A stretch of 64,000 bases of DNA from an uncultured Bacteroidota bacterium (GTDB lineage Bacteria > Bacteroidota > Bacteroidia > UKL13-3), in the NCBI GenBank assembly GCA_903883965.1, contig CAISCU010000011.1:1-64000 (forward strand). Direction: 5' to 3'. Shown here one piece after another: positions 10,144-35,845 of the stretch. The translations under genes and the position numbers were made by a program. The notes under the pieces were generated by a model. That model was not told the DNA's origin. It worked only from the letters and a program-made list of their open reading frames with translations, and made no database searches. Every line of letters starts with the position of its first letter. The first letter of the stretch is position 1.

Positions 10144-11220
10144 ATGAAGTATTTATTTACAGATAGCGTTTTATTATTTTTCATACTCACTAGCATTGCC
10201 TGTCAAAAGAATCAATCTAGTCAGGTCAATGTTAATCAATCTGACAGCTTGTTTTATAAAGGGGCAGATGTGTCATTTTTACCAGCCATCGAAAATACTT
10301 CTTTTCAATATTTAGATGCATCAGGTAAAGCAGTGCCGTTATTGCAACAACTCAAAATGGCAAATGTATCGCTCATTCGTTTGCGTTTATGGGTCAATCC
10401 TACCGATTCATTTGCAAATTTTCAGAACATGAAAAGACTCCATCTTCAAGCACAACAAATGGGGTTTCATACGTTGTTGTCTGTTCATTATTCAGATACA
10501 TGGGCCGACCCCTCTGCTCAAAGTATTCCAGCTAGTTGGTCTCAAAATAATTTTCAAGAACTCAAAAAACAACTCTATGCTTATACAGCACAATTAGCTG
10601 CTGAGTTTAAACCCAATTACATTCAAATTGGAAACGAAATCAACAATGGCTTTTTATGGCCAATAGGTAGTTATTCCAATAAGGCACAATTTGTATCGCT
10701 CATTGATACGGCCATTCAGGCAGTTCGCTTGTATAGTCCCAGTTCAAAAATTGTTTTGCATTATGCCGGACACCAATATGCCGGTGCTTTTTTTAGTCAA
10801 TTTACACATTCCGATTATGATGTAATAGGCCTGAGTTATTACCCAATTTGGCATGGAAAAAGTATAGATACACTGGCCATCAATTGCAATACATTGTATC
10901 AAAGTTTTCATAAACCCATTTTAATCTGTGAAACAGCCTATCCGTTTACACTTTTATGGAACGACAATACCAATAATATTTTGGGGTTAAACAACCAACT
11001 TTTACCAGGTTTTTCTGCAACACCGGAAGGGCAGAAGGCCTATATGGAAACATTGGTTCAGCAACTCAAAAACAACAATCATGTAATTGGGGTATGTTAT
11101 TGGGGCGCAGAATGGGTAAGTTTCAAAGGCCCCTTGTCTACTCAAGGTTCTTCATGGGAAAATCAGGCATGGTTTGATTTTAACAACAAAGCATTGCCGG
11201 TTCTCAATTATAAGAATTAA
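10144..11220 (+). CDS. arabinogalactan endo-beta-1,4-galactanase, GH53 family lipoprotein
   Basis: This 358-residue enzyme should hydrolyse internal beta-1,4-galactosyl bonds in type I arabinogalactan of plant pectin. The N-terminus has a lipobox ('TSIAC', Cys at about residue 20), so it should be anchored in a membrane facing the periplasm or cell surface. GH53 signatures are 'KGADVSFLPAIE', 'LIRLRLWVNP', 'HYSDTWADP', the acid/base Glu in 'IGNEIN' (E165) and the nucleophile Glu in 'ICETAYP' (E263). The C-terminal 'YWGAEWV' and 'WENQAWFDF' also fit. No SusC/SusD pair lies beside it, so it is not in a typical polysaccharide-utilisation locus. Confidence 0.93.
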   Translation: MKYLFTDSVLLFFILTSIACQKNQSSQVNVNQSDSLFYKGADVSFLPAIENTSFQYLDASGKAVPLLQQLKMANVSLIRLRLWVNPTDSFANFQNMKRLHLQAQQMGFHTLLSVHYSDTWADPSAQSIPASWSQNNFQELKKQLYAYTAQLAAEFKPNYIQIGNEINNGFLWPIGSYSNKAQFVSLIDTAIQAVRLYSPSSKIVLHYAGHQYAGAFFSQFTHSDYDVIGLSYYPIWHGKSIDTLAINCNTLYQSFHKPILICETAYPFTLLWNDNTNNILGLNNQLLPGFSATPEGQKAYMETLVQQLKNNNHVIGVCYWGAEWVSFKGPLSTQGSSWENQAWFDFNNKALPVLNYKN

Positions 11221-11262
11221 CCAATCTATTTGCTTAATTTAGTGAACAATGAACCTCAATTT

Positions 11263-11814
11263 ATGCAAGTAATGAGTTTTTTATTAGAGTTGGTATTGAC
11301 AATTTTGGCTATAGATTTTATTTCGGGATTGATTCATTGGGCTGAGGATACATTTGGGTCAGCAACTACTCCAATTTATGGCAAATGGATCGTAGAACCA
11401 AATACTTTACACCACGCGCATCCATCTGCTTTTATTAGTAAAAATTGGTGGCAAAGTTCATGGGACTTGACATTGGTATCTGGCATCATAGTGTTCGTTT
11501 CATATTTGAATGATATGTTGACATGGCATGTTGTTTTATTTGCTTTCTTAGGAGCCAATGCCAACCAATTGCACAAATATGCACACATGCCTACTGCTCA
11601 AGTTCCTTTATTGGTGAAGTTTTTTCAATATATAGGTTTGTTACAAAAAGCCAAACACCACGCATTGCATCATCAAGGTCAAAAAAACAACGCCTATTGT
11701 GTCATTACTCCCTATTTGAATCCAATATTAGATGCCATTGGCTTTTGGCGATTGTTAGAAAAAATAACAGTACCTATATTTGGAGCACCCAGAAGAGAAG
11801 ACTTAAAAAAATAA
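11263..11814 (+). CDS. carF: CarF/TMEM189-type plasmanylethanolamine desaturase (lipid desaturase domain)
   Basis: The protein has the complete histidine pattern of the Kua/TMEM189/CarF family: 'LIHWAEDTFG', 'LHHAHPSAF', 'NQLHKYAHM', 'HHALHHQGQ', and the family-specific 'YCVITPYLNPILDAIGFWR'. Known members (bacterial CarF, animal PEDS1) use O2 and a di-iron centre to introduce the vinyl-ether bond that turns plasmanyl into plasmenyl ethanolamine lipids. There are several hydrophobic membrane segments. A TTG at 11230 would lengthen the frame; the ATG at 11263 fits the family better. The small membrane protein downstream is 4 bp away. Function is inferred from family motifs; no ether-lipid synthesis gene is visible nearby. 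Confidence 0.85.
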   Translation: MQVMSFLLELVLTILAIDFISGLIHWAEDTFGSATTPIYGKWIVEPNTLHHAHPSAFISKNWWQSSWDLTLVSGIIVFVSYLNDMLTWHVVLFAFLGANANQLHKYAHMPTAQVPLLVKFFQYIGLLQKAKHHALHHQGQKNNAYCVITPYLNPILDAIGFWRLLEKITVPIFGAPRREDLKK

Positions 11815-11818
11815 AAAG

Positions 11819-12295
11819 ATGTATACAGAAAAACAGCGTTTCAGACAAATTTGGTTATGGGTAATTTTAATAGGTATATTAAGTTTGGCTACCTTTCAAT
11901 GGGTTCAAGTGAGTATTGAAACCAATCAATTGATCAATGAGCGCTTTGTTCCATTTGTAGTTTTGTTGCTAGTTTCTAATTTAATTTATGCGATTGAACT
12001 CAAAACCCAAATCAACGAAAGGGGTGTTCAAGTTCAGTTTTTTCCAATTCATTTTAAACCCAGGTTTTATGCATGGGAAGGTATTTTAAAAGCTGAAGTG
12101 AGAAATTATTCTCCATTGGCTGAATATGGCGGATGGGGCTATAGAATTGGGTTGTTTGGTGCCGGTAAAGCCCTCAATATTCAAGGTAATTGGGGTTTGC
12201 AATTGGTTTTTAAAAATGGCCAAAAATTGTTAATTGGCACGCAAACTCCAGAAAAAATGAGTGAAATCATGAATCAAATTAAGCTCAATGCTTAA
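11819..12295 (+). CDS. small membrane protein with PH-like C-terminal domain (DUF6141-like)
   Basis: A 158-residue protein with two N-terminal membrane segments (about residues 11-27 and 43-60) and a soluble C-terminal part. The pattern 'FYAWEGILKAEVRNYSP', 'YGGWGYRIG' and 'KNGQKLLIGTQTP' resembles small bacterial PH-like membrane proteins, in which the last strand carries 'LIGTQ.PE'. No catalytic residues are apparent. It starts 4 bp after the desaturase gene and is likely in the same transcript, but a functional link is unproven. Confidence 0.65.
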   Translation: MYTEKQRFRQIWLWVILIGILSLATFQWVQVSIETNQLINERFVPFVVLLLVSNLIYAIELKTQINERGVQVQFFPIHFKPRFYAWEGILKAEVRNYSPLAEYGGWGYRIGLFGAGKALNIQGNWGLQLVFKNGQKLLIGTQTPEKMSEIMNQIKLNA

Positions 12296-13723: not shown

Positions 13724-13752
13724 AAGGCTTTACAATCCAAATGGATTGTCCG

Positions 13753-13760
13753 TATCTTTA
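13753..13760 (+). promoter_or_regulatory. candidate -7 box of the porU2-like gene
   Basis: TATCTTTA matches the Bacteroidota -7 consensus TAnnTTTG at all but the last base. It lies about 33 bp before the ATG at 13794 and overlaps the region of a possible TTG start at 13746, which argues against that TTG. The -33 element is weak (TTT about 21 bp upstream). Confidence 0.4.
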
Positions 13761-13793
13761 CAAACAAGTTCTTTATTGAACTATATTTTAAAG

Positions 13794-16700
13794 ATGTATC
13801 GGATTTATACATATACAAAAAAGCTCAAGCAATGGATGGTATTAACCTACTGTTGTTTGGGCTTTTTTGTTCAATTGAATGCGCAAAATTTGGGTTTTGA
13901 ATGGGCTGCAAATGCTACCAAATTACTCAAGTTTCCTGTAGTAAAAAATGGGGTTTATCGCATTAGTGGGTTGCAAATGCAGCAAGCCGGATGGCAATTA
14001 AATGACATCAAACCTGCACAAATTGCAATGTATAAAATGGGTCAAGAATTGCCTATTTTACTTCAGCTCAATAACCCGAATCAACTTCAGGTAACAGATG
14101 CCATTTTATTTAATGCAACTAAAAATGAGGGTTTGCTCGACCAACAATTGTATGAGCAAAATTCAGATCAACCTCATACCTACAATAGCCTATTGGATGA
14201 TACTGCTTGGTATTTTTTAAGTATTGATACAGCCTTTCAAAGGCAAGCTATTCGTTACACTTATCCTTTACCCATAGATACTACAGGGTTGATTCCATTT
14301 TCTACATTTAATAAGCAAACCATACTGGCTCCACAAGAATATTATTACAGGGGCAAAAGACTTCCTGCCAATGAATCATATTATGTAGCTACTTATGCAG
14401 GTGGAGAGTCTTGGAGCAGTTCCCCCATAGCAAAGGGACAAAGTAGGCTTTTTAATTTCAGTGTGCCTGCATTTAAGCCTCAGTCTGAAATCAAAATGAA
14501 GGCAATTGTGATGGGTGTTTCAGATTATTTTGTGTCGGGTAACAATTTACCCAATCACCATTTTAGAATCAGTATAGTAGACAAAGTTTCCAATTTATTT
14601 TCGCTCATAGATACTTTTTATAGTGGTGCAATTCCAATTAGTATTCAAGCTTCTTTCAATTCAGATTTAATTGACACAGCATTTCAGGTTCGGGTAGAGG
14701 TAATTGATGATTTGGGTTTGGGCACAGATGTTCAAGTACTTTCTTTGATTGAAATACATTCCACACAAGATCGGCTGTCCTCAGCTATTGGTGTACAAAA
14801 ACTTGTTGCAGCAGCAGGGAGTAAAGGTCTGTTGGAAATACAACAACAAAGCGCCGATTCTTTCTTGATATTCAACTTAGCTGATTTGAAAGCCTATTGG
14901 GTCAAAGAAAAAATAGCCATTCAACTGGAAAATGCAAATGCAGAAATTGCCATCTGTCACCCTGATTCCATTTTAACAATTACAGCACTTCATACCACGC
15001 AGGTTCAAACAAATTTCAATGACGATTCCATTGCATATGTCATTGTGAGTAGTCAAAAAATAGAAACCTCAGCAAAAGCATATGCCAATTACCGCTCTAA
15101 TCAATACCATACAAGGTTATTTTTAATAGAAGATTTGGCAAATACCTATACATACGGTTACAAGCATCCGCTTGCCATTCAAAGATTGTGTCGTCATTTA
15201 TACCTATTGCAAAAACAAGCGCCTCGTTTTTTATTTTTATTGGGAAAAGGTTATCAAATAGATATTTTAAAACAAAATCAGCAAAGCATTCTAGACAATT
15301 TAGTGCCAAGTATTGGAGATCCACCATCAGACCAATTGTTCACCGAAAAATTAAATGCCAATTCTTATTTTCCTGCATTTGCCACGGGTCGTTTACCAGC
15401 ATCTTCCAATGAAGAAGTGTTGCATTACCTCAATAAAATACAAGAATCAGAAAACAATTCTAGTGCCTTAGCTTGGTGGAAAAAGCAAGCTTTGCATGTA
15501 AGTGGTGGTACCGATTACCAAACAGAACAATTGCCCTATACCCAAGTTTTAAATGGGCTCAAACCCATCATTGAAAATAACAAATTGGGCTATCAAGTAC
15601 ATACTTACAATCAAAATAATAAAAATCCTCACACTGAAAATCAATTGGCTCAGCTAGTCAAGTATCAGAATGAAGGGTTGCAATTGTTTACTTTTTTAGG
15701 ACATGGATCCTTGAGTGTATTAGATGTTTCTATAGGAAGCCTTTCTGATTTAACCGAATCGCACAAACCCGCTTTTTATTATTTCAATGGTTGTGCAATT
15801 GGTAATCCGGCAACGCTCTCACCTCAAGGTTCAGGTAAAATTTATGCGAAGGATTATTTATGCAGTCCAAACAAAGGTGCAATAGGTTGGTTGGCGCATG
15901 CTAATTTAACCTTAAATGGTCCTTTGTTTGCACAGATGGAACAAGTTTACCAATCCATTGCAACATATTCTGGTTCAATCGGAGAACAATTGCAACAGGC
16001 CTTGAATCAATATACAGCTGACAAAGATTTGTATAAAATTGAACACGCCAGACAATTGATTTTACAAGGTGATCCGGCTTATCAATTGTATCAACCTAAG
16101 TTGCCAGATATACAAATTGACGACCAATCTATTTGGATCCAAACTCCAGCTATCCATGCACAACTCGCTCAAATTCAAGTAGCAATTTGGGTGAAAAATT
16201 TGGGTAAATCTTTTGCCGATTCTGTAACGGTATTGGTAAAAAGAACTTTGCCCAATCAAGAACAAATTCAATTGCCCAGTTTGCGCTTTCCTATACCAAA
16301 TAACGCCGATACAATTGTATATACGCTAAGTGGAATTTTACCGGATCAAGCAGGTCTCAACCAATTAGATATTCAATTGGTAATTGCCGATAGTTTAAAT
16401 GAATACAATACCTCTAACAACCATGCTCATCTAGTTTTTTATTTACCAGGAAGTGGCTTGCAACCCTTATTCCCGCTACAGTTTTCAAATAGTTCATCTG
16501 ATACATTACTGCTATCCGTACAACAACTCAAACAACAAATTTCACCTGGTAGCATTCTTTTTGAAATTGATACAACACCTACATTTTTGAAAAGCAGTTC
16601 TGCATACCAGCAGTTTTTAAAAACATCTAAAAGCAATTTATACCAACAAACAATTGTATGTCCTGCACCAGATAGCTCGGTATATTGGTGGAGAGCCAAA

Positions 16701-18794
16701 TCAGTCGAAGATTCAGTTTTTGTAATAGGTACATTTAAAAAAGACAAACGCTTTTCTAATCAATTTTCACAAACAAATTTTTATCAATTCATGCAAGAAA
16801 GCACCTTGCAACAGCTCATTCCAGATACATCTCTCAAGCGTTTTAATTTTGAAAATAACTTTTGGAATATTGGCATTGAGAACAGAAGATGGGACCATAG
16901 AATGATGGGAGTGACCGAGCCTTATTTGTTAAATGAAGGTGTTGGCAATTGCATATCTCAAGGAGTTGTTGCCTTGGCATTTGATCCAAATCTGGTTGCT
17001 ATGCCTCAAGAAATTGCTGCATTCCCATTTAATTGCACCTACGTTCAAAATAACAAAAGCAATATCAGTAATCGGTATTATACTTTCAATACCAATACAC
17101 TTTCTGGGGAACAAGAATTGGTGCAGTTTATTCAGTCAGTTCCTGATCACTTTGAAATAGCAATGTTTTCAAGGTATGCCAGTCATATTCATTCTTGGCA
17201 AATAGCTACCAAACAAGCGCTATCCTCAATTGGAGCCAACAAATCAATTCAGCTTCAAACCGATAATTCGGCTTGGGCAATTATTGGTTCAAAAGCAAAC
17301 CCATTGCAATCTGAAGAAGACACGGTAAGCAATGTTGAATTGGCAGGAAATGTTCATCTTCCACCTTTGCCAAACGAAGCTCAAGATATTAATTATTTAA
17401 AAATCAATAAACAGGTAAATGGCAAATGGTATAATGGATCACTCTCAACTCAGTGGGTAGGTCCTGCTGCAAATTTTAATAAATTCAAGGCTGAATTTAA
17501 ATTGCTCGAACCTTCAGATAAAATATCAGTTCAATGTTTGGTCCAAAATAAACAATCAATCGATTCAATGTTATTTGAAACAAATCAATTCGATTCCATT
17601 TCAATTGCAGATTTTACCAAACAAAAATCCCCATACCTCAAATTCATATTCAATTTTACAGATAGCATCAATAGAACTCCCGCCCAATTGTCTAAATGGA
17701 CTTTGACTTATGATCCATTGCCTGAATTATTAGTTGATCCTTTTAATGGGATCCCATTCATTCCTAGTCAAATTATACAAGGAGATCAGGTAACACTTAA
17801 TTTGCCTGTTAGAAACATTTCTACAACACCAGCTGATTCATGCGAAATTCAATGGAAAATAATTGATTCTTTACAACATCAAGTATATTTTAATAAGAGC
17901 CTAATCGCACCAATTATAGGGTTGGATACCACTGATGTGAACATCACTTTTTCAAGTCATTTGTTAACAGGTAAATGTGCCTTAGAGTTAGAAATCAATC
18001 CGAACCATTTGTTTCAAGAAGTAAATTATTCAAATAATTATTTGAAAACCTATTTTCAGGTGATACCAGACAATTCAGCTCCTGCATTGGAAGTACTTGT
18101 AGATGGTCGAAAAATTATCTCTGGCGAAATGGTATCAGCAAAACCTGGTATAGAATTACGCCTAACAGATTCTCACTATATCGGTCAAAATATAGATAGC
18201 ATTCCATTTGAATTGAAATTGAGAAAACCCAATCAAACCCAATTTGAAACAATCAACCTTCATGCCGCAAATGTTAAATACACCAGTTCAAATGGGCCCA
18301 ATAGCCAAGCCATTTTAAATTACTATCCTGTTTTTGATATGGATGGAATCTATACCCTTCGAGCTAGAGCAGTTGATGGCATTGGTAATTGGACAGTACA
18401 GCCAATTGAAATACAGATGGAAGTGAAAAATGCAGCTGCAATTTCTCATTTTTATCCTTATCCCAATCCGTTTACATCGCAAATGAGATTTGTGTTTACT
18501 TTAACGGGTTCGGAAATTCCTGAACAAATTTTAATTCGAATTTTTACTGTTGATGGAAGGTTAGTGAAAGAGGTTAGTCAGTCTGAATTAGGGAATATAC
18601 ATATAGGTACTAATATCAGTTCGTGGTATTGGGATGGCACAGATCAATTTGGAGATCAGTTAGCAAATGGAGTTTATTTTTATACTGTTCATACCCAATT
18701 AAATGGCAAACAACTCGAAGTCAATCCCGTTAATAACAAGGAAAATGAGAGGTATTTCAAAGCAAATACAGGCAAAATTTATTTGATGCGATAA
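13794..18794 (+). CDS. porU2: putative T9SS sortase, PorU2-like, peptidase C25 family
   Basis: This very large 1666-residue protein has a signal peptide (hydrophobic core near 'VLTYCCLGFFVQLNAQ') followed by a beta-rich N-terminal region. It then has a gingipain-type C25 domain with catalytic His in 'TFLGHGSLS' (about H637) and Cys in 'YFNGCAIGNP' (about C667), spaced as in gingipains. The C-terminus has CARDB-like beta domains and an FlgD-like 'YPYPNPF...GTDQFGDQLANGVYFY' ending. PorU is the C25 sortase that cleaves the CTD of T9SS cargo and attaches it to the cell surface; PorU2 is its larger paralogue of less certain role. The T9SS cargo genes elsewhere in the window are plausible clients. 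The ATG at 13794 is chosen. Confidence 0.82.
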   Translation: MYRIYTYTKKLKQWMVLTYCCLGFFVQLNAQNLGFEWAANATKLLKFPVVKNGVYRISGLQMQQAGWQLNDIKPAQIAMYKMGQELPILLQLNNPNQLQVTDAILFNATKNEGLLDQQLYEQNSDQPHTYNSLLDDTAWYFLSIDTAFQRQAIRYTYPLPIDTTGLIPFSTFNKQTILAPQEYYYRGKRLPANESYYVATYAGGESWSSSPIAKGQSRLFNFSVPAFKPQSEIKMKAIVMGVSDYFVSGNNLPNHHFRISIVDKVSNLFSLIDTFYSGAIPISIQASFNSDLIDTAFQVRVEVIDDLGLGTDVQVLSLIEIHSTQDRLSSAIGVQKLVAAAGSKGLLEIQQQSADSFLIFNLADLKAYWVKEKIAIQLENANAEIAICHPDSILTITALHTTQVQTNFNDDSIAYVIVSSQKIETSAKAYANYRSNQYHTRLFLIEDLANTYTYGYKHPLAIQRLCRHLYLLQKQAPRFLFLLGKGYQIDILKQNQQSILDNLVPSIGDPPSDQLFTEKLNANSYFPAFATGRLPASSNEEVLHYLNKIQESENNSSALAWWKKQALHVSGGTDYQTEQLPYTQVLNGLKPIIENNKLGYQVHTYNQNNKNPHTENQLAQLVKYQNEGLQLFTFLGHGSLSVLDVSIGSLSDLTESHKPAFYYFNGCAIGNPATLSPQGSGKIYAKDYLCSPNKGAIGWLAHANLTLNGPLFAQMEQVYQSIATYSGSIGEQLQQALNQYTADKDLYKIEHARQLILQGDPAYQLYQPKLPDIQIDDQSIWIQTPAIHAQLAQIQVAIWVKNLGKSFADSVTVLVKRTLPNQEQIQLPSLRFPIPNNADTIVYTLSGILPDQAGLNQLDIQLVIADSLNEYNTSNNHAHLVFYLPGSGLQPLFPLQFSNSSSDTLLLSVQQLKQQISPGSILFEIDTTPTFLKSSSAYQQFLKTSKSNLYQQTIVCPAPDSSVYWWRAKSVEDSVFVIGTFKKDKRFSNQFSQTNFYQFMQESTLQQLIPDTSLKRFNFENNFWNIGIENRRWDHRMMGVTEPYLLNEGVGNCISQGVVALAFDPNLVAMPQEIAAFPFNCTYVQNNKSNISNRYYTFNTNTLSGEQELVQFIQSVPDHFEIAMFSRYASHIHSWQIATKQALSSIGANKSIQLQTDNSAWAIIGSKANPLQSEEDTVSNVELAGNVHLPPLPNEAQDINYLKINKQVNGKWYNGSLSTQWVGPAANFNKFKAEFKLLEPSDKISVQCLVQNKQSIDSMLFETNQFDSISIADFTKQKSPYLKFIFNFTDSINRTPAQLSKWTLTYDPLPELLVDPFNGIPFIPSQIIQGDQVTLNLPVRNISTTPADSCEIQWKIIDSLQHQVYFNKSLIAPIIGLDTTDVNITFSSHLLTGKCALELEINPNHLFQEVNYSNNYLKTYFQVIPDNSAPALEVLVDGRKIISGEMVSAKPGIELRLTDSHYIGQNIDSIPFELKLRKPNQTQFETINLHAANVKYTSSNGPNSQAILNYYPVFDMDGIYTLRARAVDGIGNWTVQPIEIQMEVKNAAAISHFYPYPNPFTSQMRFVFTLTGSEIPEQILIRIFTVDGRLVKEVSQSELGNIHIGTNISSWYWDGTDQFGDQLANGVYFYTVHTQLNGKQLEVNPVNNKENERYFKANTGKIYLMR

Positions 18795-27558: not shown

Positions 27559-28149
27559 TTATTTAACCAATGTATCTGTAACAATTGTTCCTGACTCAAT
27601 AGGGTAATATGGGCTTATCATTAAATAAACAATTACACCCGTGATGGTAACATACAACCAAATTGGATAGGCAAAACGAACTATTTTCTTGTGCAATGCC
27701 ACTTGCATTTGTAATCCTCTATAAAAGCTCATTAAAATTAAGGGGAGTACAACTGCTGCAAGCACAATATGAGAAATTAAAATCAATAAATATGTTTGTC
27801 TTAAACTTGGGTTGTTGTTAGGAAATTCTGTGCTTTCAGCCAACCAATGGTATAAAACATATGATACCAAAAATACCGATGACAATGCAAATGCAGTTAA
27901 ATTAGTTATTTTATGTGCTTGGATGTTTTTCTTTTTGATGAAATAAAGAGAAACTACCAATAGCAAACTACATGTAGCGTTAATAAATGCATTTAATTTA
28001 GGTAAAAAGTATGTCCACGATGGCAGAACATCTGGTTTAGGCAGTACCTGTTGGTTTAAAACAATAACTGCAATGAGTACTACAATACTAATGCTCATTG
28101 CAATTTTAAAAATGAGTTTATCTTGCTGATCCTGGTGCGTGGTATTCAT
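27559..28149 (-). CDS. DUF420 membrane protein (CtaM-like)
   Basis: A 196-residue integral membrane protein with five or six predicted segments. The segment 'LPKLNAFINATCSLLLV', the histidine-containing 'IQAHKITNLTAF', 'LYHWLAESTEFPN' and 'LILISHIVLAAVVLPL' are the DUF420 signatures. Family members such as CtaM are required for maturation of heme A-containing oxidase in Gram-positive bacteria, and here the gene lies directly after SCO in the oxidase operon, with a 32-bp overlap. Direct evidence in Bacteroidota is not visible from sequence. Confidence 0.88.
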   Translation of the reverse strand: MNTTHQDQQDKLIFKIAMSISIVVLIAVIVLNQQVLPKPDVLPSWTYFLPKLNAFINATCSLLLVVSLYFIKKKNIQAHKITNLTAFALSSVFLVSYVLYHWLAESTEFPNNNPSLRQTYLLILISHIVLAAVVLPLILMSFYRGLQMQVALHKKIVRFAYPIWLYVTITGVIVYLMISPYYPIESGTIVTDTLVK

Positions 28150-28786
28150 ATAGTAATAATTTAATATCTCCTTCTAATCGTTTAATTTCAGCATCGCTTT
28201 CACTGTCATAGACACCTCTAATTCTATTTGATTTGTCTACCAATATAAACTGTTGACTGTGGTCAATTGTTTTGCTTTCATTTGAGATGGGTAACAACAA
28301 GCCTTTCCCTAACTTCACAATTGTATCATTGTTTCCTGTTAAGAAATGCCAAATTTTTGGATCTGCTTTGAATTGATTGGCATATTCTTTTAAAACGGAG
28401 ACACTGTCATTTGCTGGATCTACAGTAACAGTTGCAAAATGTACTTCACTAAATTCTTTGTATTTGTCGTAAATGCTTTGCAATCTTCTGTTCATCCTTG
28501 GACAAACTTCTTCGCAGTTTGCAAAAAAGAAATTATAAATAGTGATGCCATTGCTTAAATTTTGTTGAGAGAAAGTTTGTCCTGTTTGGTCTACCAAATG
28601 GAAATCAGGTACAGCGTAATAGACTGTATCTGTTGAATGGATACCATCTGGTGGGGTTCTTTCTCCAAAAATGGGCAGTCTCTCAAAATTTTGTGTTCCA
28701 GCATTGAACACATAAAAAAAGACAACCGGAATAACAAGTATCCCGGTTGCCAGCCAAAAGCTCTTTCTGTTCATATTTTTTACCAT
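28118..28786 (-). CDS. SCO1/SenC-type copper chaperone of cytochrome oxidase
   Basis: The 222-residue protein has an N-terminal membrane anchor (about residues 11-28) and a thioredoxin fold. The copper site is C-x3-C-P 'NCEEVCP' (Cys91 and Cys95), with the conserved distal His in 'TIDHSQQFILVD'. SCO proteins deliver copper to, or reduce the cysteines of, the CuA site of subunit II, whose gene is in this same operon. The first ATG lies inside the stop region of the subunit IV gene (7 bp overlap); a second ATG 12 bases later is an alternative. Confidence 0.93.
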   Translation of the reverse strand: MVKNMNRKSFWLATGILVIPVVFFYVFNAGTQNFERLPIFGERTPPDGIHSTDTVYYAVPDFHLVDQTGQTFSQQNLSNGITIYNFFFANCEEVCPRMNRRLQSIYDKYKEFSEVHFATVTVDPANDSVSVLKEYANQFKADPKIWHFLTGNNDTIVKLGKGLLLPISNESKTIDHSQQFILVDKSNRIRGVYDSESDAEIKRLEGDIKLLLYEYHAPGSAR

Positions 28787-29115
28787 CTCAACTGAAAGGT
28801 GTAATCTCCTTCAATCAGCATCAATGCAATAAAGAAAACCACAAAAATCATAGGTACAATAATCATGTACATCAATACTTTTCTTTCAAATTTCATGTGC
28901 ATGAATACACCAACAATGTACCAAGCTTTTACTATACCCAATACAATAAACAATGCATTTTTAAGCATTGAATGAGTGCTCAACAAAGCAAAATACAATG
29001 CAATGTCAACAATGGTTAATCCCAATAAAATCCAGAATGTATGCCAGATTTTACTTTTCATATCTGCTGGAGTTTCCGTGTGCTCCAAGTGTTCTGTGTG
29101 ATCCATGTGTTCCAT
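28780..29115 (-). CDS. cytochrome c oxidase subunit IV (prokaryotic)
   Basis: A 111-residue protein with three membrane segments after a His/Glu-rich N-terminus (several 'H' residues in the first 12). The segments 'FWILLGLTIVDIALYF', 'ALFIVLGIVKAWYIVGVFMHMKFE' (quoted as 'KAWYIVGVFMHMKFE') and 'MYMIIVPMIFVVFF' fit the COX4-pro family, in which 'VKA.yv..yFMHmk.E' is the signature. It is a small accessory subunit of the oxidase with unclear role. Operon spacing to subunit III is 28 bp. Confidence 0.9.
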   Translation of the reverse strand: MEHMDHTEHLEHTETPADMKSKIWHTFWILLGLTIVDIALYFALLSTHSMLKNALFIVLGIVKAWYIVGVFMHMKFERKVLMYMIIVPMIFVVFFIALMLIEGDYTFQLRW

Positions 29116-29143
29116 TATCTTAATAATTTTAATGCGTGCTAAA

Positions 29144-29899
29144 TCAAATTAAATAGAAGAAAGTAAATACAAATACCCAAACTAAATCTACAAAGTGCCA
29201 GTACAATCCAACTTTTTCAACCATTTCATAGTGGCCTCTTTTTTCATAAGTGCCATTTAAAACATTTATATAGATGATTACATTCAATACAACACCTGAA
29301 AATACGTGAAAGCCATGGAAACCTGTTACAATAAAGAACAATGCTGCAAAGGATCTAGGTCCAAATGGGTTACCATACAACCTAGCACCTTCACCAATAA
29401 ATGTTGTCCATTCCCAAGCTTGACATCCTAAAAAGGCTGCACCTCCAATAATGGTTAACAACATGTAGTTTGCTACTTCTTTTTTCTGCATTCTGTGTCC
29501 AGCTTCAACTGCCAATACCATGGTAACTGAGCTAAATATCAAAATGAAAGTCATTAAACTTACAAAAAACAAAGGCAAGTGAAGTCCATGTATAAAAGGA
29601 AAATGGTTAAATACCAATTCTGGAGCAGGCCAATGATCTTGAACAAATAAGCCAGCTTTGTTCATGGCTTCAGTAAAATGTTCAGCAACATGAGAAAGGG
29701 GTTTTACTATGGTATTTTCCATTGGACTTGGAAAGCTATACCTAATGAATCCGTATGCAATGAGCAAAGACGAGAAAGTAAATGCATCTGAAAGAAGGAA
29801 AATCCACATCATTAATTTTCCATAACTCACGCTGAAAGGAGATTTGCCTCCACCCCAAGCTGTTTTCTTGTCGGTACTTAAGTTAGTTGTGTTAGCCAT
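29144..29899 (-). CDS. ctaE: cytochrome c oxidase subunit III (first copy, longer)
   Basis: A 251-residue heme-copper oxidase subunit III. Features are 'GKLMMWIFLLSDAFTFSSLL' near the N-terminus, 'CQAWEWTTFI', 'FFIVTGFHGFHVFSGVVLN' with the conserved histidines, and the C-terminal 'GLYWHFVDLVWVFVFTFFYLI'. This is the signature end of the family. The insert between helices I and II ('VKPLSHVAEHFTEAMNKAGLF') is larger than usual and is typical of Bacteroidota. A second, shorter subunit III gene lies directly upstream in the operon. Confidence 0.93.
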   Translation of the reverse strand: MANTTNLSTDKKTAWGGGKSPFSVSYGKLMMWIFLLSDAFTFSSLLIAYGFIRYSFPSPMENTIVKPLSHVAEHFTEAMNKAGLFVQDHWPAPELVFNHFPFIHGLHLPLFFVSLMTFILIFSSVTMVLAVEAGHRMQKKEVANYMLLTIIGGAAFLGCQAWEWTTFIGEGARLYGNPFGPRSFAALFFIVTGFHGFHVFSGVVLNVIIYINVLNGTYEKRGHYEMVEKVGLYWHFVDLVWVFVFTFFYLI

Positions 29900-29938
29900 G
29901 TTTGAATAGATTGCTGTTATAAGTTGTTTTATTAATTA

Positions 29939-30523
29939 TTATCTATTTAGGTATAGGAAAAAGTACAAGTATATCCAAAGTATGCCAATGAAATGCCAGT
30001 AGGTATTACACATGCTGTGGTAAATATTCATACCAGAACCATTTTTAGTTTTAGACAGCGATTGAATACTTACAATACTTAGAAATAAAATTCCTCCAAT
30101 CATGTGGGCCAAATGAACGCCTGTTATCACATAAACAAATGAATTGGATGGATTAGAAAATGCAAAATAAACATTGTCTGCTATGAGTTGTTTCCAACCT
30201 AAATATTGCAATACACAGAATAAAATTCCTAATCCTAGTGTAAACCACAAAAACAAACTTGCTTTGGCATGATTTAATTTTTTTGCAGAAAGGGTTGATA
30301 ACTGCATGCTCACTGATGAAAGTATAATTGCAATTGTAGAATAGATGAAGTTGCTAGGTAAATTAAATAATTCCCAGTTGCCTTCTCCTCTTCTAACAAT
30401 GTATGCACTGGTAAAGCCAGCAAATAACATCACACTTGCCACTATGATTAACCACAAAACAAATTTTTTCGGGTTGATGACAAAGTCTGTCTCAGATGCG
30501 TTGGTTATGGTATTGGTACTCAT
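29939..30523 (-). CDS. cytochrome c oxidase subunit III (second copy, shorter)
   Basis: This shorter subunit III has about 194 residues from the ATG at 30523; a TTG at 30538 would add five residues and is less likely. The sequence has 'KFVLWLIIVASVMLFAGFTSAYIVRR', quoted as 'IIVASVMLFAGFTSAYIVRR', then 'YVITGVHLAHMIGGILFL' and 'MCNTYWHFIGILWIYLYFFLYL'. These match helices III to VII of the family. Duplicated subunit III genes are common in Bacteroidota oxidase operons. The two copies differ strongly, so they are old paralogues, not a recent duplication. Confidence 0.9.
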   Translation of the reverse strand: MSTNTITNASETDFVINPKKFVLWLIIVASVMLFAGFTSAYIVRRGEGNWELFNLPSNFIYSTIAIILSSVSMQLSTLSAKKLNHAKASLFLWFTLGLGILFCVLQYLGWKQLIADNVYFAFSNPSNSFVYVITGVHLAHMIGGILFLSIVSIQSLSKTKNGSGMNIYHSMCNTYWHFIGILWIYLYFFLYLNR

Positions 30524-30524
30524 C

Positions 30525-31421
30525 TTAGATTTTATCAATTAAATAGGCCAATTGTACAAGGGGTAAATATAAAAACGAAGCAAACATCAATTTTTTTGCT
30601 TCTTTCATTTCGCAGGTTTTGTATAATTTAAAGGCAAAATAGCTCAGCATTAAACCACCAAGAATACCTACTATTCCTGCAATTGGACCTGCTATACCCA
30701 GTTGAACAGGTATGAATCCAAAAGGTATCAATACCAAACTAAAAGCAAGTGTTTGCAACGCGGTAATTTTATCTCTCCCAGTTGTTGAAGGCAACATCTT
30801 AAATCCTGCTCGTTTGTAATCGTCGTCTAATATCCAAGCAATACTCCAAAAATGGGGGAATTGCCAAAAAAACTGAATGCCAAATAGTGCCAAACCAGAA
30901 GCATCAATTTTTCCAGTTAAAGCTACCCAACCCAATAGTGTTGGCAATGCACCCGGAAAAGCCCCAACAAATACAGAAATAGGAGTGATGCGTTTCATTG
31001 GGGTATATATGAAAGCATAAGAAAGCAATGCTGCCAATGCTAAAAAACCGGCTAATTGGTTTAAAAACAACGCAATAATAGCAATTCCGATGATTCCCAA
31101 TATTGCACTAAACAATGATGCTTCCAACACCGACATTCTGTTGGTTGCAACAGGCCTGTTTGCAGTTCTGAGCATCAATTTGTCAAAATCTTTTTCAATT
31201 ACTTGATTGATGCCATTGGCTGCACCTGTTACCATGAACCCGCCTATGGCAAGCATTGCAACTTCTGTCCAATTGACACTGCCATGATTGGCTGTAAAAT
31301 AAGTAACCACAGAAGAGAAAACCACCAAAGAGCTAAGTCTTAACTTAACCAATTGGCTGTAGTCTTGTAATTTGCCATTCAGCAAGCTCAAGGTACCGAT
31401 TTGTTTTTCTGTTGTTATCAT
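30525..31421 (-). CDS. ctaB: protoheme IX farnesyltransferase (heme O synthase)
   Basis: A 298-residue UbiA-superfamily membrane enzyme that attaches a farnesyl group to heme B to give heme O. Key motifs are 'GAANGINQVIEKDFDKLMLRT', quoted as 'NGINQVIEKDFDKLM', with the N-x3-D-x2-D-type prenyl diphosphate site, 'RPVATNRMS', 'YTPMKRITPISVFVGAFPGALP' (given as 'TPMKRITPISVFVGAFPGAL'), and the second acidic site 'DDDYKRAGFKMLP'. It has several membrane segments. The next gene encodes heme A synthase, which takes the product further, and both feed the aa3-type oxidase. Confidence 0.96.
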   Translation of the reverse strand: MITTEKQIGTLSLLNGKLQDYSQLVKLRLSSLVVFSSVVTYFTANHGSVNWTEVAMLAIGGFMVTGAANGINQVIEKDFDKLMLRTANRPVATNRMSVLEASLFSAILGIIGIAIIALFLNQLAGFLALAALLSYAFIYTPMKRITPISVFVGAFPGALPTLLGWVALTGKIDASGLALFGIQFFWQFPHFWSIAWILDDDYKRAGFKMLPSTTGRDKITALQTLAFSLVLIPFGFIPVQLGIAGPIAGIVGILGGLMLSYFAFKLYKTCEMKEAKKLMFASFLYLPLVQLAYLIDKI

Positions 31422-31430
31422 TTTATTTAT

Positions 31431-32402
31431 TTACGCGCTATGCGATTCAATTTCAGTTTTTGTAAATACCAAGATTGCAATGAACAATTGCAATCCAATG
31501 GTCAAGCTACCCAATGTTAAATGAATACTTTGCATTTGACCGGGAAAGCCTAGGTTACTAAGAATTACACCTGTAAATGCTTGTAAACTCATTAATAACA
31601 ATAAGGCCAAGCCTGATTTGTATATGAGTTGGTGAGGATAGAATAGTTTTCTGTACTGTGTAAACAAGTAAAAACTGATTACCAAATTGAGGCTGCTCAA
31701 ACTTCTGTGAAAATAAAACACTGCAGATGCATGATCAATCCACTGATTTCGATCGTCTATCATTAGCGCAATTTGATCTACCCATTCTCGCACTTGAGTG
31801 CCGCTAATAGTTTGAATCAAGCCAATGCACAAGCCCAATAACAATAGTTTATGCAAATGTTTGTGTGTTTGTTTTTGCTGAATTTTAAATTGCTGACTGC
31901 GAGTTATTGTATATATCAACAAGCCAACAATCACCAAGGCAATTACCATGTGAATGGTAATCATCCAGGTAGCCAAATCTGTCGCTACTACTTTTGCTCC
32001 AATCCAACCTTGAAATCCAACCAATAGCAATGCCAGAAAACTCAACCAAAATATTTTAGGGTCAGTTTTTCTGTATGGAAAAGCAAAAACTACAGTTAAT
32101 AAAATCAAGAACCCTATTACTACCCCAATCAATCGATTGATGTACTCAGTCCAAGTTTTAAAGGCATCAAAAGGCGCGATTGATTTTCCTGCAACAGCAA
32201 ACACCTCTTGGTAATTTTCTGGTAATTCGGTTACTTGAGTAGGAGGTACCCATTTGCCAAAACATTTTGGCCAATCAGGACACCCCATTCCACTACCAGT
32301 ACTTCTTACCAGTCCACCAACAAATATGAGAAAGAACAAAGCGAAAATGGTTGCAATTCCAAATCGTCTGAATCGAATAATATAGCTTGGTTCGTTTTTC
32401 AA
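31431..32402 (-). CDS. ctaA: heme A synthase (COX15/CtaA family)
   Basis: This 323-residue eight-helix enzyme oxidises heme O to heme A. Signature segments are 'GGLVRSTGSGMGCPDWPKCFG' (given as 'VRSTGSGMGCPDWPKCFG'), the conserved 'WTEYINRLIGVVIGFL' with the helix II His replaced by an E-Y-I-N-R-L-I-G pattern, 'GAKVVATDLATWMITIHMVIAL' and the C-terminal 'SIHLTLGSLTIGL' with His. The Cys pair 'GMGCPDWPKC' matches the family. No ATG precedes the first helix; the start is a TTG at 32402, 24 bp after subunit I. A TTG start is plausible because it keeps a basic N-terminus before the first helix. Confidence 0.94.
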   Translation of the reverse strand: MKNEPSYIIRFRRFGIATIFALFFLIFVGGLVRSTGSGMGCPDWPKCFGKWVPPTQVTELPENYQEVFAVAGKSIAPFDAFKTWTEYINRLIGVVIGFLILLTVVFAFPYRKTDPKIFWLSFLALLLVGFQGWIGAKVVATDLATWMITIHMVIALVIVGLLIYTITRSQQFKIQQKQTHKHLHKLLLLGLCIGLIQTISGTQVREWVDQIALMIDDRNQWIDHASAVFYFHRSLSSLNLVISFYLFTQYRKLFYPHQLIYKSGLALLLLMSLQAFTGVILSNLGFPGQMQSIHLTLGSLTIGLQLFIAILVFTKTEIESHSA

Positions 32403-32426
32403 GATCCGCTATTCTATTTCAATCAA

Positions 32427-34265
32427 CTAGTGGTTTGCTGAATTTTCGGTATTAACTGGCTCAGGCAATCCATTTGATTCATCAAGTGGATCAATTTGGC
32501 CTTTATCTGGAACATTTTGAGGAATGAAGTCTTCATTGTGTCCAGGTTTGCTGTAATCATAAGCCCAACGGTACACATGTGGAATTTCACCTGGCCAGTT
32601 GCCATGCAAATGTTCAACTGGAGCAGTCCATTCTAAAGTGTTAGATTTCCATGGGTTTTGAGGTGCTTTTCTACCTTTTAATGCTGAGTAGAAGAAGTTC
32701 ACCAAGAATATAACTTGAGCCAAACCACCTAACAAAGCAGCAATGGTAATGAATTGGTTCATGTCAATAAATACATTGAACTGATCATAAGCAGTATTGG
32801 CATAATATCTTCTTGGAACACCAGCCAATCCCATGAAGTGCATAGGGAAGAATACGCAATAAGCAGAAATCAATGTTAACCAGAAGTGAATTTGACCAGC
32901 AGTTTCATTCATCATACGCCCAAACATTCTTGGGAACCAATGGTAAATTCCACTCATCATTCCAAAAATGGCAGCACTACCCATTACTAAGTGGAAATGT
33001 GCTACTACAAAATACGTATCGTGTAAGTTAATATCTAAAGCGGCATTTCCTAGGTAAATACCAGTTAAACCACCAGAAATAAACAATGAAACCAATCCAA
33101 TGGCAAACATCATAGCTGGTGTCAATTGTAAATTACCTTGCCAAAGTGTGGCCAAGTAATTGAATGTTTTAACTGCAGAAGGAACCGCAATAATTAAGGT
33201 TCCTAACATAAATACAGATCCCAAGAAAGGATTCATACCAGTTAAAAACATGTGGTGACCCCAAACGATGAAACTCAAAACACCAATGGCCAAGATAGAA
33301 CCAATCATGGCTCTGTAACCAAAAATTGGTTTGCGAGAATTGGTAGCAATTACTTCAGATGTAATACCCAAAGCAGGCAATAAAATGATGTATACCTCAG
33401 GGTGACCTAAGAACCAAAACAAATGCTGGAACAAAATTGGAGATCCACCAGTTCTTTCAATGCCACCTGCAAACTCAGCCACAATTTCAGATAAATAGAA
33501 CGATGTTCCAAAACTTCTATCAAATACCAATAACAAAGAACCGCCTAACAATACAGGGAATGAAAGTAAACCCAAAACAGCAGTTACTAAGAATGCCCAA
33601 ATAGTCAAAGGCAAACGAGTCATTTTCATGCCCTTTGTGCGCATGTTTAAAATGGTTGCAATATAATTGATACCTCCTAACAAAGAAGAAGCAATGAACA
33701 AAATCATTGAAACCAACCACAGCGTCATACCAGTTCCAGATCCTGGAATGGCTTTAGGCAATGCAGAAAGTGGAGGATATACTGTCCATCCTGCTGATGC
33801 TGGTCCACCATCTACAAATAAAGAGAATACCAATACAGCAGAAGAAAGGAAGAAGAACCAGTAAGACAACATATTCATAAATGGAGATGCCATGTCTCGA
33901 GCACCAACCTGTAATGGAATGAGTAAATTACTAAATGTTCCACTTAAGCCTGCTGTCAATACAAAGAACACCATGATGGTACCATGAATGGTAATCAAGG
34001 CTAAATAAAAATTTGGATCTAATTTACCATCTTTACCCCAATGTCCTAAAATGCCTTCTAAAAAGCTGAATTTCATGTCAGGATAAGCCAATTGTAACCT
34101 GAATATCATAGACATTAACATACCCAATGTTCCCATGATAATACCTGTAATCAGGAACTGACGGGAAATCATTTTGTGGTCCATGCTAAAGATGTACTTT
34201 GAAATGAAAGTCTCTTTGTGGTGACCGTGATCTTCGTGATGATTGTTCATATTGTGATCGCTCAT
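32427..34265 (-). CDS. ctaD: cytochrome c oxidase subunit I, A1-type heme-copper oxidase
   Basis: The 612-residue catalytic subunit has 12 membrane helices. It carries 'HGTIMVFFV', the K-pathway/CuB region 'WFLGHPEVYIILLPALG' (His and cross-linked Tyr; the GHPEV form marks the A1 subfamily), 'WGHHMFLTGM' for the two CuB histidines, and 'HDTYFVVAHFHLVMG' for the heme a3 and heme a histidines. It catalyses reduction of O2 to water coupled to proton pumping. The N-terminus is His-rich ('NNHHEDHGHHKE'), unusual and possibly metal-binding. It is directly followed by heme A synthase and preceded by subunit II. Confidence 0.97.
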   Translation of the reverse strand: MSDHNMNNHHEDHGHHKETFISKYIFSMDHKMISRQFLITGIIMGTLGMLMSMIFRLQLAYPDMKFSFLEGILGHWGKDGKLDPNFYLALITIHGTIMVFFVLTAGLSGTFSNLLIPLQVGARDMASPFMNMLSYWFFFLSSAVLVFSLFVDGGPASAGWTVYPPLSALPKAIPGSGTGMTLWLVSMILFIASSLLGGINYIATILNMRTKGMKMTRLPLTIWAFLVTAVLGLLSFPVLLGGSLLLVFDRSFGTSFYLSEIVAEFAGGIERTGGSPILFQHLFWFLGHPEVYIILLPALGITSEVIATNSRKPIFGYRAMIGSILAIGVLSFIVWGHHMFLTGMNPFLGSVFMLGTLIIAVPSAVKTFNYLATLWQGNLQLTPAMMFAIGLVSLFISGGLTGIYLGNAALDINLHDTYFVVAHFHLVMGSAAIFGMMSGIYHWFPRMFGRMMNETAGQIHFWLTLISAYCVFFPMHFMGLAGVPRRYYANTAYDQFNVFIDMNQFITIAALLGGLAQVIFLVNFFYSALKGRKAPQNPWKSNTLEWTAPVEHLHGNWPGEIPHVYRWAYDYSKPGHNEDFIPQNVPDKGQIDPLDESNGLPEPVNTENSANH

Positions 34266-34294
34266 ATACCTATTGTTTTCTTTTTCTGATTAAA

Positions 34295-35725
34295 TTATTT
34301 AGACGCAATTGAATTGTTTACAGGTTGGTTCGTAATTGTTTTTTGACTAGCTAACCATTTTTCGTAAGCTTCTTTAGTGTCAACTACAACCACCATTTTC
34401 ATTCTGTAATGTGCACTTCCGCAAATCTTGTTACAAAGTAATACGTAATCAAATTCAGGTTTACCCAATTTATTTCTCATGTCGGCAGTAGTAACTGTTG
34501 GTGTAAAAGAGAATTTAGTCGGTAAGCCTGGAACTACGTTCATTTGTGCACGGAAATGAGGGAAATAAGCACTATGAATTACATCTTTTGATCTGAAATG
34601 GAAGTTCACTGGTTTGCCAACTTCTAAGTGCAATTCTTTTACTACAACATCGTCTTTTGCTTTCTCATCAGTAGTATCAACACCCAACGCATTCACTTTT
34701 CCGATTTCTCTAAAATTGTGTGCGCCTAATTTGTTATCAGCTCCAGCAAGGCGGGCATCCCAAGCAAATTGGTATCCAAAAATTTCAACTTCACGGGCAT
34801 TTTCTTCTTTGCTGTACATGATATTGTTCCAAGTCATCAAACCTCTAATTACCAAAACGGTTAAAACAACAGCTGGAACGATGGTCCAAATGAATTCTAA
34901 TTTGTGGTTATCAGGGAAGTACATGGCTTTTCTCTTGCCATCATTCTTGTATTTGTAAGCATACCAGAATAACAATATTTGAGTGATTACAAATACCACA
35001 CCGGTTAATCCTAAGGTAATCATAAACATATTGTCATACTCATCTCCATGAGCAGATGCAGAACCCATTGCGAAAACGGTTAATTTACCGTGTACATAGA
35101 ACTCCCAGAATGTGGCAATCAATCCAATGATGAGGAATGCCATCACCAACAAACCATTGGTTTGTGTCCAATTGATGACAGGTTTACCTTGTATTTCACC
35201 AATTTTGTTCAATATGCCAAATATTCTAGAAATAATAGCAATGAGTAAAATAGAGATGATAACCAATAACCAATTGATTTCAGTTTTGTAATCATTGCTT
35301 GTATTTGCAGTTTCGTTGGTGTTTGATCCAGCTACAGTTGCTGTAGCAGCTTGAGCAGCAGGTGCTTCACTTTCAGCTTTTACATAAGCAATGATTGATT
35401 TTATTTGTACATCGGTTAAACTTTCAAAAGAAGTCATGACACTTTCGTTGTTCTCTTTATACAATTGAACAGCTGTGGCATCTCCTGATTTTACCATGGC
35501 TTGTGAGTTTTTTACCCATTTAATCAACCATGATTCTTCTCTGCGCTTGTGTACGTCTTTCAATGCTGGTCCAACAATTTTATCGTTGATGGCATGGCAT
35601 GCGGTACAATTTGCATTGAAAAGGGTCTTTCCTTCATCGGCACTTTGGGCTTTTGTAGAAAAACCAAAAGAGATTAAAATGGATAAAAAGAAAAGACTTT
35701 TAGTTAATGATTTGAAAATCTTCAT
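34295..35725 (-). CDS. ctaC: cytochrome c oxidase subunit II with N-terminal cytochrome c domain
   Basis: A 476-residue product from the ATG at 35725; the open frame extends to a TTG at 35773 but the later start gives a clean signal peptide ending 'STKAQ'. Residues about 25-115 form a class I cytochrome c domain (heme site 'CTACH', distal Met in 'SVMTSFESL'). After a low-complexity Ala/Thr linker come three or four membrane segments and a cupredoxin CuA domain with 'HSAYFPHFRAQMNV' and 'CNKICGSAHYRM', the complete CuA ligand set. In canonical caa3 oxidases the cytochrome c domain is at the C-terminus. Here it is N-terminal. Confidence 0.93.
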   Translation of the reverse strand: MKIFKSLTKSLFFLSILISFGFSTKAQSADEGKTLFNANCTACHAINDKIVGPALKDVHKRREESWLIKWVKNSQAMVKSGDATAVQLYKENNESVMTSFESLTDVQIKSIIAYVKAESEAPAAQAATATVAGSNTNETANTSNDYKTEINWLLVIISILLIAIISRIFGILNKIGEIQGKPVINWTQTNGLLVMAFLIIGLIATFWEFYVHGKLTVFAMGSASAHGDEYDNMFMITLGLTGVVFVITQILLFWYAYKYKNDGKRKAMYFPDNHKLEFIWTIVPAVVLTVLVIRGLMTWNNIMYSKEENAREVEIFGYQFAWDARLAGADNKLGAHNFREIGKVNALGVDTTDEKAKDDVVVKELHLEVGKPVNFHFRSKDVIHSAYFPHFRAQMNVVPGLPTKFSFTPTVTTADMRNKLGKPEFDYVLLCNKICGSAHYRMKMVVVVDTKEAYEKWLASQKTITNQPVNNSIASK

Positions 35726-35845
35726 TTTGCTTACTTTTTGTGAGGTTCCTGTTTGGTTTATTTTGCGTTGCAATATAAGAAAGTAATCTTTTTGTTAAAG
35801 ATTATTTGCTAAAAAAGAATTCCCTGCACGCTGTTGAAATCTGCT

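What the first reader, a model, noticed from the sequence alone, without database searches (positions are those of the whole stretch)
11263..11814. CarF/TMEM189-type plasmalogen desaturase in a Bacteroidota genome
The protein has all histidine clusters and the IGFWR-type C-terminal signature of plasmanylethanolamine desaturases, enzymes that make the vinyl-ether bond of plasmalogens using oxygen. Bacterial members are known mainly from myxobacteria and a few other groups. Here the gene is in an aerobic bacterium with a complete oxidase operon. The source of the alkyl-ether precursor is not visible.
Basis: partly seen in the sequence, partly recalled or inferred. Interest (0 to 1): 0.6.

Follow-up and report, generated by a model that had tools for sequence, protein, structure and literature searches.

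The report
Bacterial lipid desaturase, probably not plasmalogen-making
A Bacteroidota genome carries a small membrane enzyme of the family that includes the human plasmalogen-making enzyme and a plant chloroplast desaturase, but it lacks residues, and its genome lacks partner genes, expected of a plasmalogen maker, so it more likely puts a double bond into an ordinary membrane lipid chain.

Summary
The gene is real: window 11263-11814 (+), 183 aa, Pfam PF10520 Lipid_desat (E 3e-38), with all eight family histidines and the essential aspartate. The 'CarF/PEDS1' label is not supported. The ninth histidine required in CarF/PEDS1 is lysine here, mouse Phe118 is Asn, and CarF's first transmembrane helix is missing. 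The score to NCBI's CarF model (90.6 bits) matches other bacterial relatives (63-95) and plant FAD4 (72), against 234 for human PEDS1. The 'IGFWR' motif is not diagnostic. The genome shows no AGPS, FAR-acyltransferase fusion or PlsA, so no route to the ether precursor was found. Trees mostly place window-type proteins apart from PEDS1, but PEDS1's position is unstable and AU tests do not reject a link. Best reading: an uncharacterised, patchily distributed bacterial subgroup of O2-dependent di-iron lipid desaturases, probably acting near the backbone end of an acyl chain in intact phospholipid. Context support comes from Verrucomicrobia of a neighbouring clade, where the gene heads an lplT-(lnt-like)-aas lysophospholipid-recycling cluster. 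Phages also carry the family. The product is unproven; ordinary to mildly interesting.

The parts
11263..11814 (+). Lipid_desat (PF10520) membrane di-iron lipid desaturase, 183 aa; ligand His at residues 25, 50, 51, 104, 108, 133, 136, 137; Asp29 = mouse PEDS1 D100
   Evidence: AlphaFold2 model mean pLDDT 91.7
11230..11262 (+). possible 11-aa N-terminal extension from an alternative TTG start; the open frame reaches only 14 aa upstream of the ATG, so no extra transmembrane helix is encoded there
11819..12295 (+). uncharacterised 158-aa protein, 4 bp after the desaturase stop, probably co-transcribed; no Pfam match; among the fetched loci a homologue is found only in the same-genus relative L012 (58% identity)
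10144..11220 (+). GH53 family glycosidase, 42 bp upstream; conserved next to the desaturase only in L012

Best explanation
The gene encodes an O2-dependent, di-iron membrane lipid desaturase of the PF10520 family, in a bacterial subgroup distinct in its residues from CarF/PEDS1. Eight histidines and Asp29 form the metal site (shown: conservation; inferred by homology: metal binding). Like its two characterised relatives it probably works on an intact glycerophospholipid and removes two hydrogens from carbons close to the glycerol backbone (inferred). Since no ether precursor pathway was found and the PEDS1-specific residues are missing, the substrate is most likely an ester-linked acyl chain, so the product would be a C2-C4 unsaturated acyl phospholipid in the manner of plant FAD4, rather than a vinyl ether (inferred). 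The gene is an accessory trait, patchily carried and probably laterally spread. No redox partner was identified.
For: PF10520 E 3e-38. Eight His and the Asp invariant in 65 sequences. Ninth-His column is K in the window and its Bacteroidota sister rows (R in the two Planctomycetota) and F118 column is N. CarF-model score 90.6 bits against 234 for human PEDS1, 72 for FAD4, 63-95 for other bacterial relatives. No AGPS: the single FAD-oxidase_C protein is GlcD/LctD type (421 bits to glcD; 308 bits full length to LctD; only 68-82 bits over part of its length to AGPS structures). No PlsA family. NAD_binding_4 matches lie in frames of 314-375 aa and one of 649 aa, none recognisable as a FAR-acyltransferase fusion. 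In Verrucomicrobia L018, L023, L030, L033 the gene precedes lplT, followed by an lnt-like gene and aas in L018, L023, L033; Omnitrophota L072 has a fused LplT-PlsC-Aas 1.3 kb downstream. Patchy: 9 of 58 relatives have PF10520; Planctomycetota rows nest among Bacteroidota rows (99/92).
Against: The lplT/aas context is in relatives at about 45% identity, not at the window, whose neighbours (GH53, 158-aa hypothetical, M20 peptidase) say nothing about lipids. Regiochemistry and substrate class cannot be read from sequence. H131A of mouse PEDS1 keeps some activity (PMC8960569), so loss of the ninth His is not absolute proof of a different reaction.
Confidence: 0.5

Rival explanations
1. It is a true plasmanylethanolamine desaturase: it makes the vinyl ether of plasmalogens from alkyl-ether phospholipids taken from the environment or made by an unknown route.
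For: All eight shared ligand histidines and Asp29 present. IGFWR-like C-terminus. When FAD4 and two alphaproteobacterial rows are left out, human PEDS1 attaches beside the window clade (10-row set, 97/94), and AU tests do not reject {window clade + PEDS1} (p 0.068; p 0.35).
Against: Ninth His = K and F118 = N. CarF-model score at the level of FAD4. First CarF transmembrane helix missing. No AGPS, FAR-acyltransferase fusion or PlsA found. In the full trees PEDS1 falls outside the window-type rows (99/96; 97/93).
Confidence: 0.13
2. It desaturates a Bacteroidota-type non-glycerolipid (sphingolipid, sulfonolipid or N-acyl amino-acid lipid).
For: Host is Bacteroidota, which make such lipids (PMC10191378); the substrate of this subgroup is unknown.
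Against: The same subgroup occurs in Verrucomicrobia, Planctomycetota, Gemmatimonadota, Acidobacteriota and phages, and where context speaks it is lysophospholipid recycling.
Confidence: 0.2
3. It is a PF10520 protein with another di-iron outcome (lipid hydroxylase or similar) or an acyl-chain desaturase acting far from the backbone.
For: Histidine-rich di-iron membrane enzymes include hydroxylases (established knowledge). The genome already has four ordinary FA_desaturase (PF00487) genes, so a redundant mid-chain desaturase is possible.
Against: Both characterised branches of PF10520 are desaturases acting near the backbone (PMC8960569, PMC9131029).
Confidence: 0.17

Closest known systems
CarF / TMEM189 / PEDS1 plasmanylethanolamine desaturase (NCBIfam NF045946, EC 1.14.19.77)
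   Same: PF10520 domain, eight ligand histidines, essential Asp (mouse D100), FWxxLE-type C-terminus
   Different: Ninth His is K, F118 is N, the N-terminal region with the first transmembrane helix is missing, 90.6 bits to the CarF model against 234 for human PEDS1, no ether-lipid genes found in the genome
Plant FAD4 (delta-3-trans desaturase of chloroplast phosphatidylglycerol)
   Same: PF10520 domain, eight histidines, no ninth His (R in plants, K here), similar low CarF-model score (72 against 91)
   Different: Sequence is distant and does not group specifically with the window; no chloroplast PG context; trans geometry and PRXQ dependence untested
Alphaproteobacterial CarF homologues (such as that of Bradyrhizobium), reported not to replace CarF
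   Same: Bacterial PF10520 proteins without the ninth His (PMC9131029)
   Different: The tested Bradyrhizobium protein itself was not fetched; the alphaproteobacterial rows here fall either outside the window-type group (L107, L109) or in a separate clade of it (L051, L052, L077, L083, L084)
Uncharacterised bacterial PF10520 subgroup of Verrucomicrobiota, Planctomycetota and Bacteroidota
   Same: The window lies inside it; PNxxHHxxPxxFxxxxWWQSSWD-type signature; about 38-78% identity
   Different: Verrucomicrobial members have lplT/aas or divergent LysR neighbours that are absent at the window

Membership tests
PF10520 Lipid_desat | Score over the Pfam gathering cut-off across the domain | tested here: met
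   131.9 bits against 26.4, profile 3-174 of 175
PF10520 Lipid_desat | Eight conserved ligand histidines | tested here: met
   H25, H50, H51, H104, H108, H133, H136, H137
CarF/PEDS1 | Essential Asp (mouse D100) | tested here: met
   D29; also present in FAD4, so not discriminating
CarF/PEDS1 | Ninth histidine (CarF H113, mouse H131) | tested here: not met
   Lys in the window and its Bacteroidota sister rows
CarF/PEDS1 | Phe at mouse F118 | tested here: not met
   Asn; Asn in 64 of 68 rows
CarF/PEDS1 | NCBIfam NF045946 equivalog cut-off | tested here: not met
   90.6 against 500 bits; human PEDS1 itself gets 234, so the relative score counts more than the cut-off
CarF/PEDS1 | N-terminal region with the first of four transmembrane helices | tested here: not met
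   Match starts at model position 59; the open frame reaches only 14 aa upstream of the ATG
CarF/PEDS1 | Grouping with PEDS1 in a tree | tested here: inconclusive
   Outside in full trees, beside it when other distant rows are left out, AU p 0.068 and 0.35
CarF/PEDS1 | Ether-precursor genes in the genome (AGPS, or FAR-domain ElbD) | tested here: not met
   Only a GlcD/LctD-type FAD-oxidase_C protein; no FAR-acyltransferase fusion recognised among NAD_binding_4 matches; no PlsA. ElbD itself was not used as a query
CarF/PEDS1 | Vinyl-ether product or carF complementation | not testable with these tools
   needs lipidomics or genetics
Plant FAD4 type | Delta-3 double bond in the sn-2 acyl chain of phosphatidylglycerol | not testable with these tools
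   needs lipid analysis
Plant FAD4 type | Grouping with FAD4 in a tree | tested here: not met
   FAD4 falls outside the window-type rows, on a very long branch and from a recalled sequence

The most novel reading that the evidence does not exclude
A widespread but unstudied bacterial (and phage-carried) branch of PF10520 is a new class of backbone-proximal phospholipid desaturase, tied in some lineages to LplT/Lnt/Aas lysophospholipid recycling, making an unusual C2-C4 unsaturated phospholipid in aerobic bacteria.
Probability: 0.35. Interest if true: 0.6.

Novelty: new member of a known kind. Interest (0 to 1): 0.3.

Why it matters
It warns against reading any bacterial PF10520 gene as evidence of plasmalogens: one residue column and the presence of ether-lipid genes help to separate the cases. 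If this branch has its own product, that would be an undescribed bacterial membrane lipid type, and the relatives' gene context points to a testable role in phospholipid remodelling.

Tried and rejected
Plasmids: no tblastn match to the window protein. Solved structures: no sequence match, single or profile, and no Foldseek match in the PDB at E up to 0.001; the confident fold matches were two viral proteins, one a Harvfovirus Lipid_desat protein. Window neighbourhood: conserved only in the same-genus relative, so uninformative. The idea that the GlcD-like gene is an AGPS was tested and rejected. The idea that IGFWR marks PEDS1 was rejected. Tree evidence alone was judged inconclusive.

Full report
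Observation. The ORF at 11263-11814 (+) is open, 183 aa, with an optional TTG start 33 bp upstream. Pfam PF10520 Lipid_desat matches it end to end at E 3.2e-38, and it is the only such gene in the 2.48 Mb, 55-contig genome. An AlphaFold2 model from 65 homologues is confident (mean pLDDT 91.7, pTM 0.86). It has no confident match in the PDB but matches a giant-virus Lipid_desat protein.

What kind of PF10520 protein. The family has two characterised branches: CarF/TMEM189/PEDS1, which makes the vinyl ether of plasmalogens, and plant FAD4, which makes a delta-3-trans acyl chain in phosphatidylglycerol. Two papers give the discriminating facts (PMC9131029, PMC8960569). Eight His are essential in both. 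A ninth His (CarF H113, mouse H131) is present in metazoan, myxobacterial and Leptospira proteins, is usually Arg in plants and is absent from Alphaproteobacteria; the plant and alphaproteobacterial homologues did not replace CarF in M. xanthus. In the mouse enzyme H131A kept a little activity, D100A lost all and F118A kept 6%.

Residue test. All 65 aligned sequences keep the eight His and the Asp. Only four bacterial rows (L018, L024, L026, L074) have His at the ninth column, and none of 16 viral rows does.

Profile test. The window scores 90.6 bits to NF045946. Ten diverse bacterial relatives score 63-95 and FAD4 72, against 234 for human PEDS1. The window is therefore no closer to CarF than the rest of its bacterial branch. 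The match starts at model position 59, and the open frame gives no room for the first of CarF's four transmembrane helices. The IGFWR motif occurs in 11 of 70 rows, including acidobacterial and planctomycetal ones.

Tree test. With all rows, 66 window-type rows lie on one side of a branch (99/96) from PEDS1, FAD4 and two alphaproteobacterial rows. This is not robust: with FAD4 and those two rows left out, PEDS1 moves beside the window clade, and holding the window clade with PEDS1 is not rejected (AU p 0.068; 0.35 with viral rows added). Holding only window, L012 and PEDS1 together is rejected (p 0.006). I count the tree as inconclusive on the window clade versus PEDS1. It is clear that the window sits in a Bacteroidota-Planctomycetota clade (99/95), next to Verrucomicrobia with weaker support (91/86).

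Genome test. No AGPS: the single FAD-oxidase_C gene is GlcD/LctD-like. In nine other genomes that carry the desaturase, the best FAD-oxidase_C proteins align to this GlcD over most of its length at 24-89% identity. No PlsA family. NAD_binding_4 matches lie in frames of 314-375 aa and one of 649 aa, and none was recognised as a FAR-acyltransferase fusion. So an alkyl-ether precursor route is not evident. Four ordinary FA_desaturase genes are present.

Distribution and context. 9 of 58 searched genomes (the own genome and its relatives) carry PF10520. The CarF model rings in 2 of 396 Bacteroidota. 76 loci were found in Bacteroidota, Verrucomicrobiota, Planctomycetota, Gemmatimonadota, Acidobacteriota, Alphaproteobacteria and candidate phyla. 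At the window the neighbours are GH53, a 158-aa hypothetical and an M20 peptidase, shared as a set only with the same-genus relative. In Verrucomicrobia L018, L023 and L033 the order is desaturase, lplT, lnt-like, aas; L030 has desaturase, lplT; Omnitrophota L072 has a fused LplT-PlsC-Aas downstream. LplT flips lysophospholipid and Aas reacylates it; Lnt produces lyso-PE by taking the sn-1 chain of PE (PMC11416262). Most Opitutae loci have a divergent LysR gene instead.

Mechanism proposed. A di-iron centre at the eight His activates O2 and abstracts hydrogens from a lipid chain (established for the family, inferred here). An acyl rather than alkyl substrate is inferred from the ether genes not found and the PEDS1 residues missing. 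Backbone proximity is inferred from both known branches. A phospholipid substrate is inferred from those branches and from the lplT/aas context of relatives.

Verdict. Family correct, PEDS1 label not supported, function of the subgroup unknown experimentally. Useful as a correction; the subgroup itself deserves a lipidomics test.

Noticed in passing
L141:3004-3549, L136:3001-3543, L131:2168-2731, L133:2980-3516, L146:2992-3522 (IMG/VR); OL955261.1 2337-2873 (Erythrobacter phage vB_EliS-L02, L148): Phages carry PF10520-type lipid desaturases: L141's lies directly before a terminase large subunit, L136's is near a head maturation protease/major head gene, and the cultured Erythrobacter phage has one (annotated hypothetical) between phoH and the portal gene. 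No PHROGs family matches the copies tested.
   Followed up: partly
L018:4989-10540, L023:5001-10414, L033:5001-10540; L030; L072: The desaturase heads an lplT, lnt-like, aas cluster in Verrucomicrobia, and sits upstream of a fused LplT-PlsC-Aas gene in Omnitrophota.
   Followed up: yes
L019-L022, L025-L028, L031, L032, L034-L036, L039, L043, L049, L068, L086: A LysR-family regulator is divergently transcribed next to the desaturase in most Opitutae loci, suggesting regulated expression.
   Followed up: partly
L018, L024, L026, L074: Four bacterial rows have a His at the PEDS1 ninth-histidine column although they belong to the non-CarF branch.
   Followed up: no
window 28118-35773: Readable caa3/aa3-type cytochrome oxidase cluster (Sco, CtaA, CtaB, subunits I, II with a cytochrome c domain, III) on the minus strand.
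   Followed up: no
window 13746-18794 and 46681-49362: Large proteins that look like type IX secretion or gliding-associated proteins (PorU-like; gliding-type C-terminal domain), from reading the translations.
   Followed up: no
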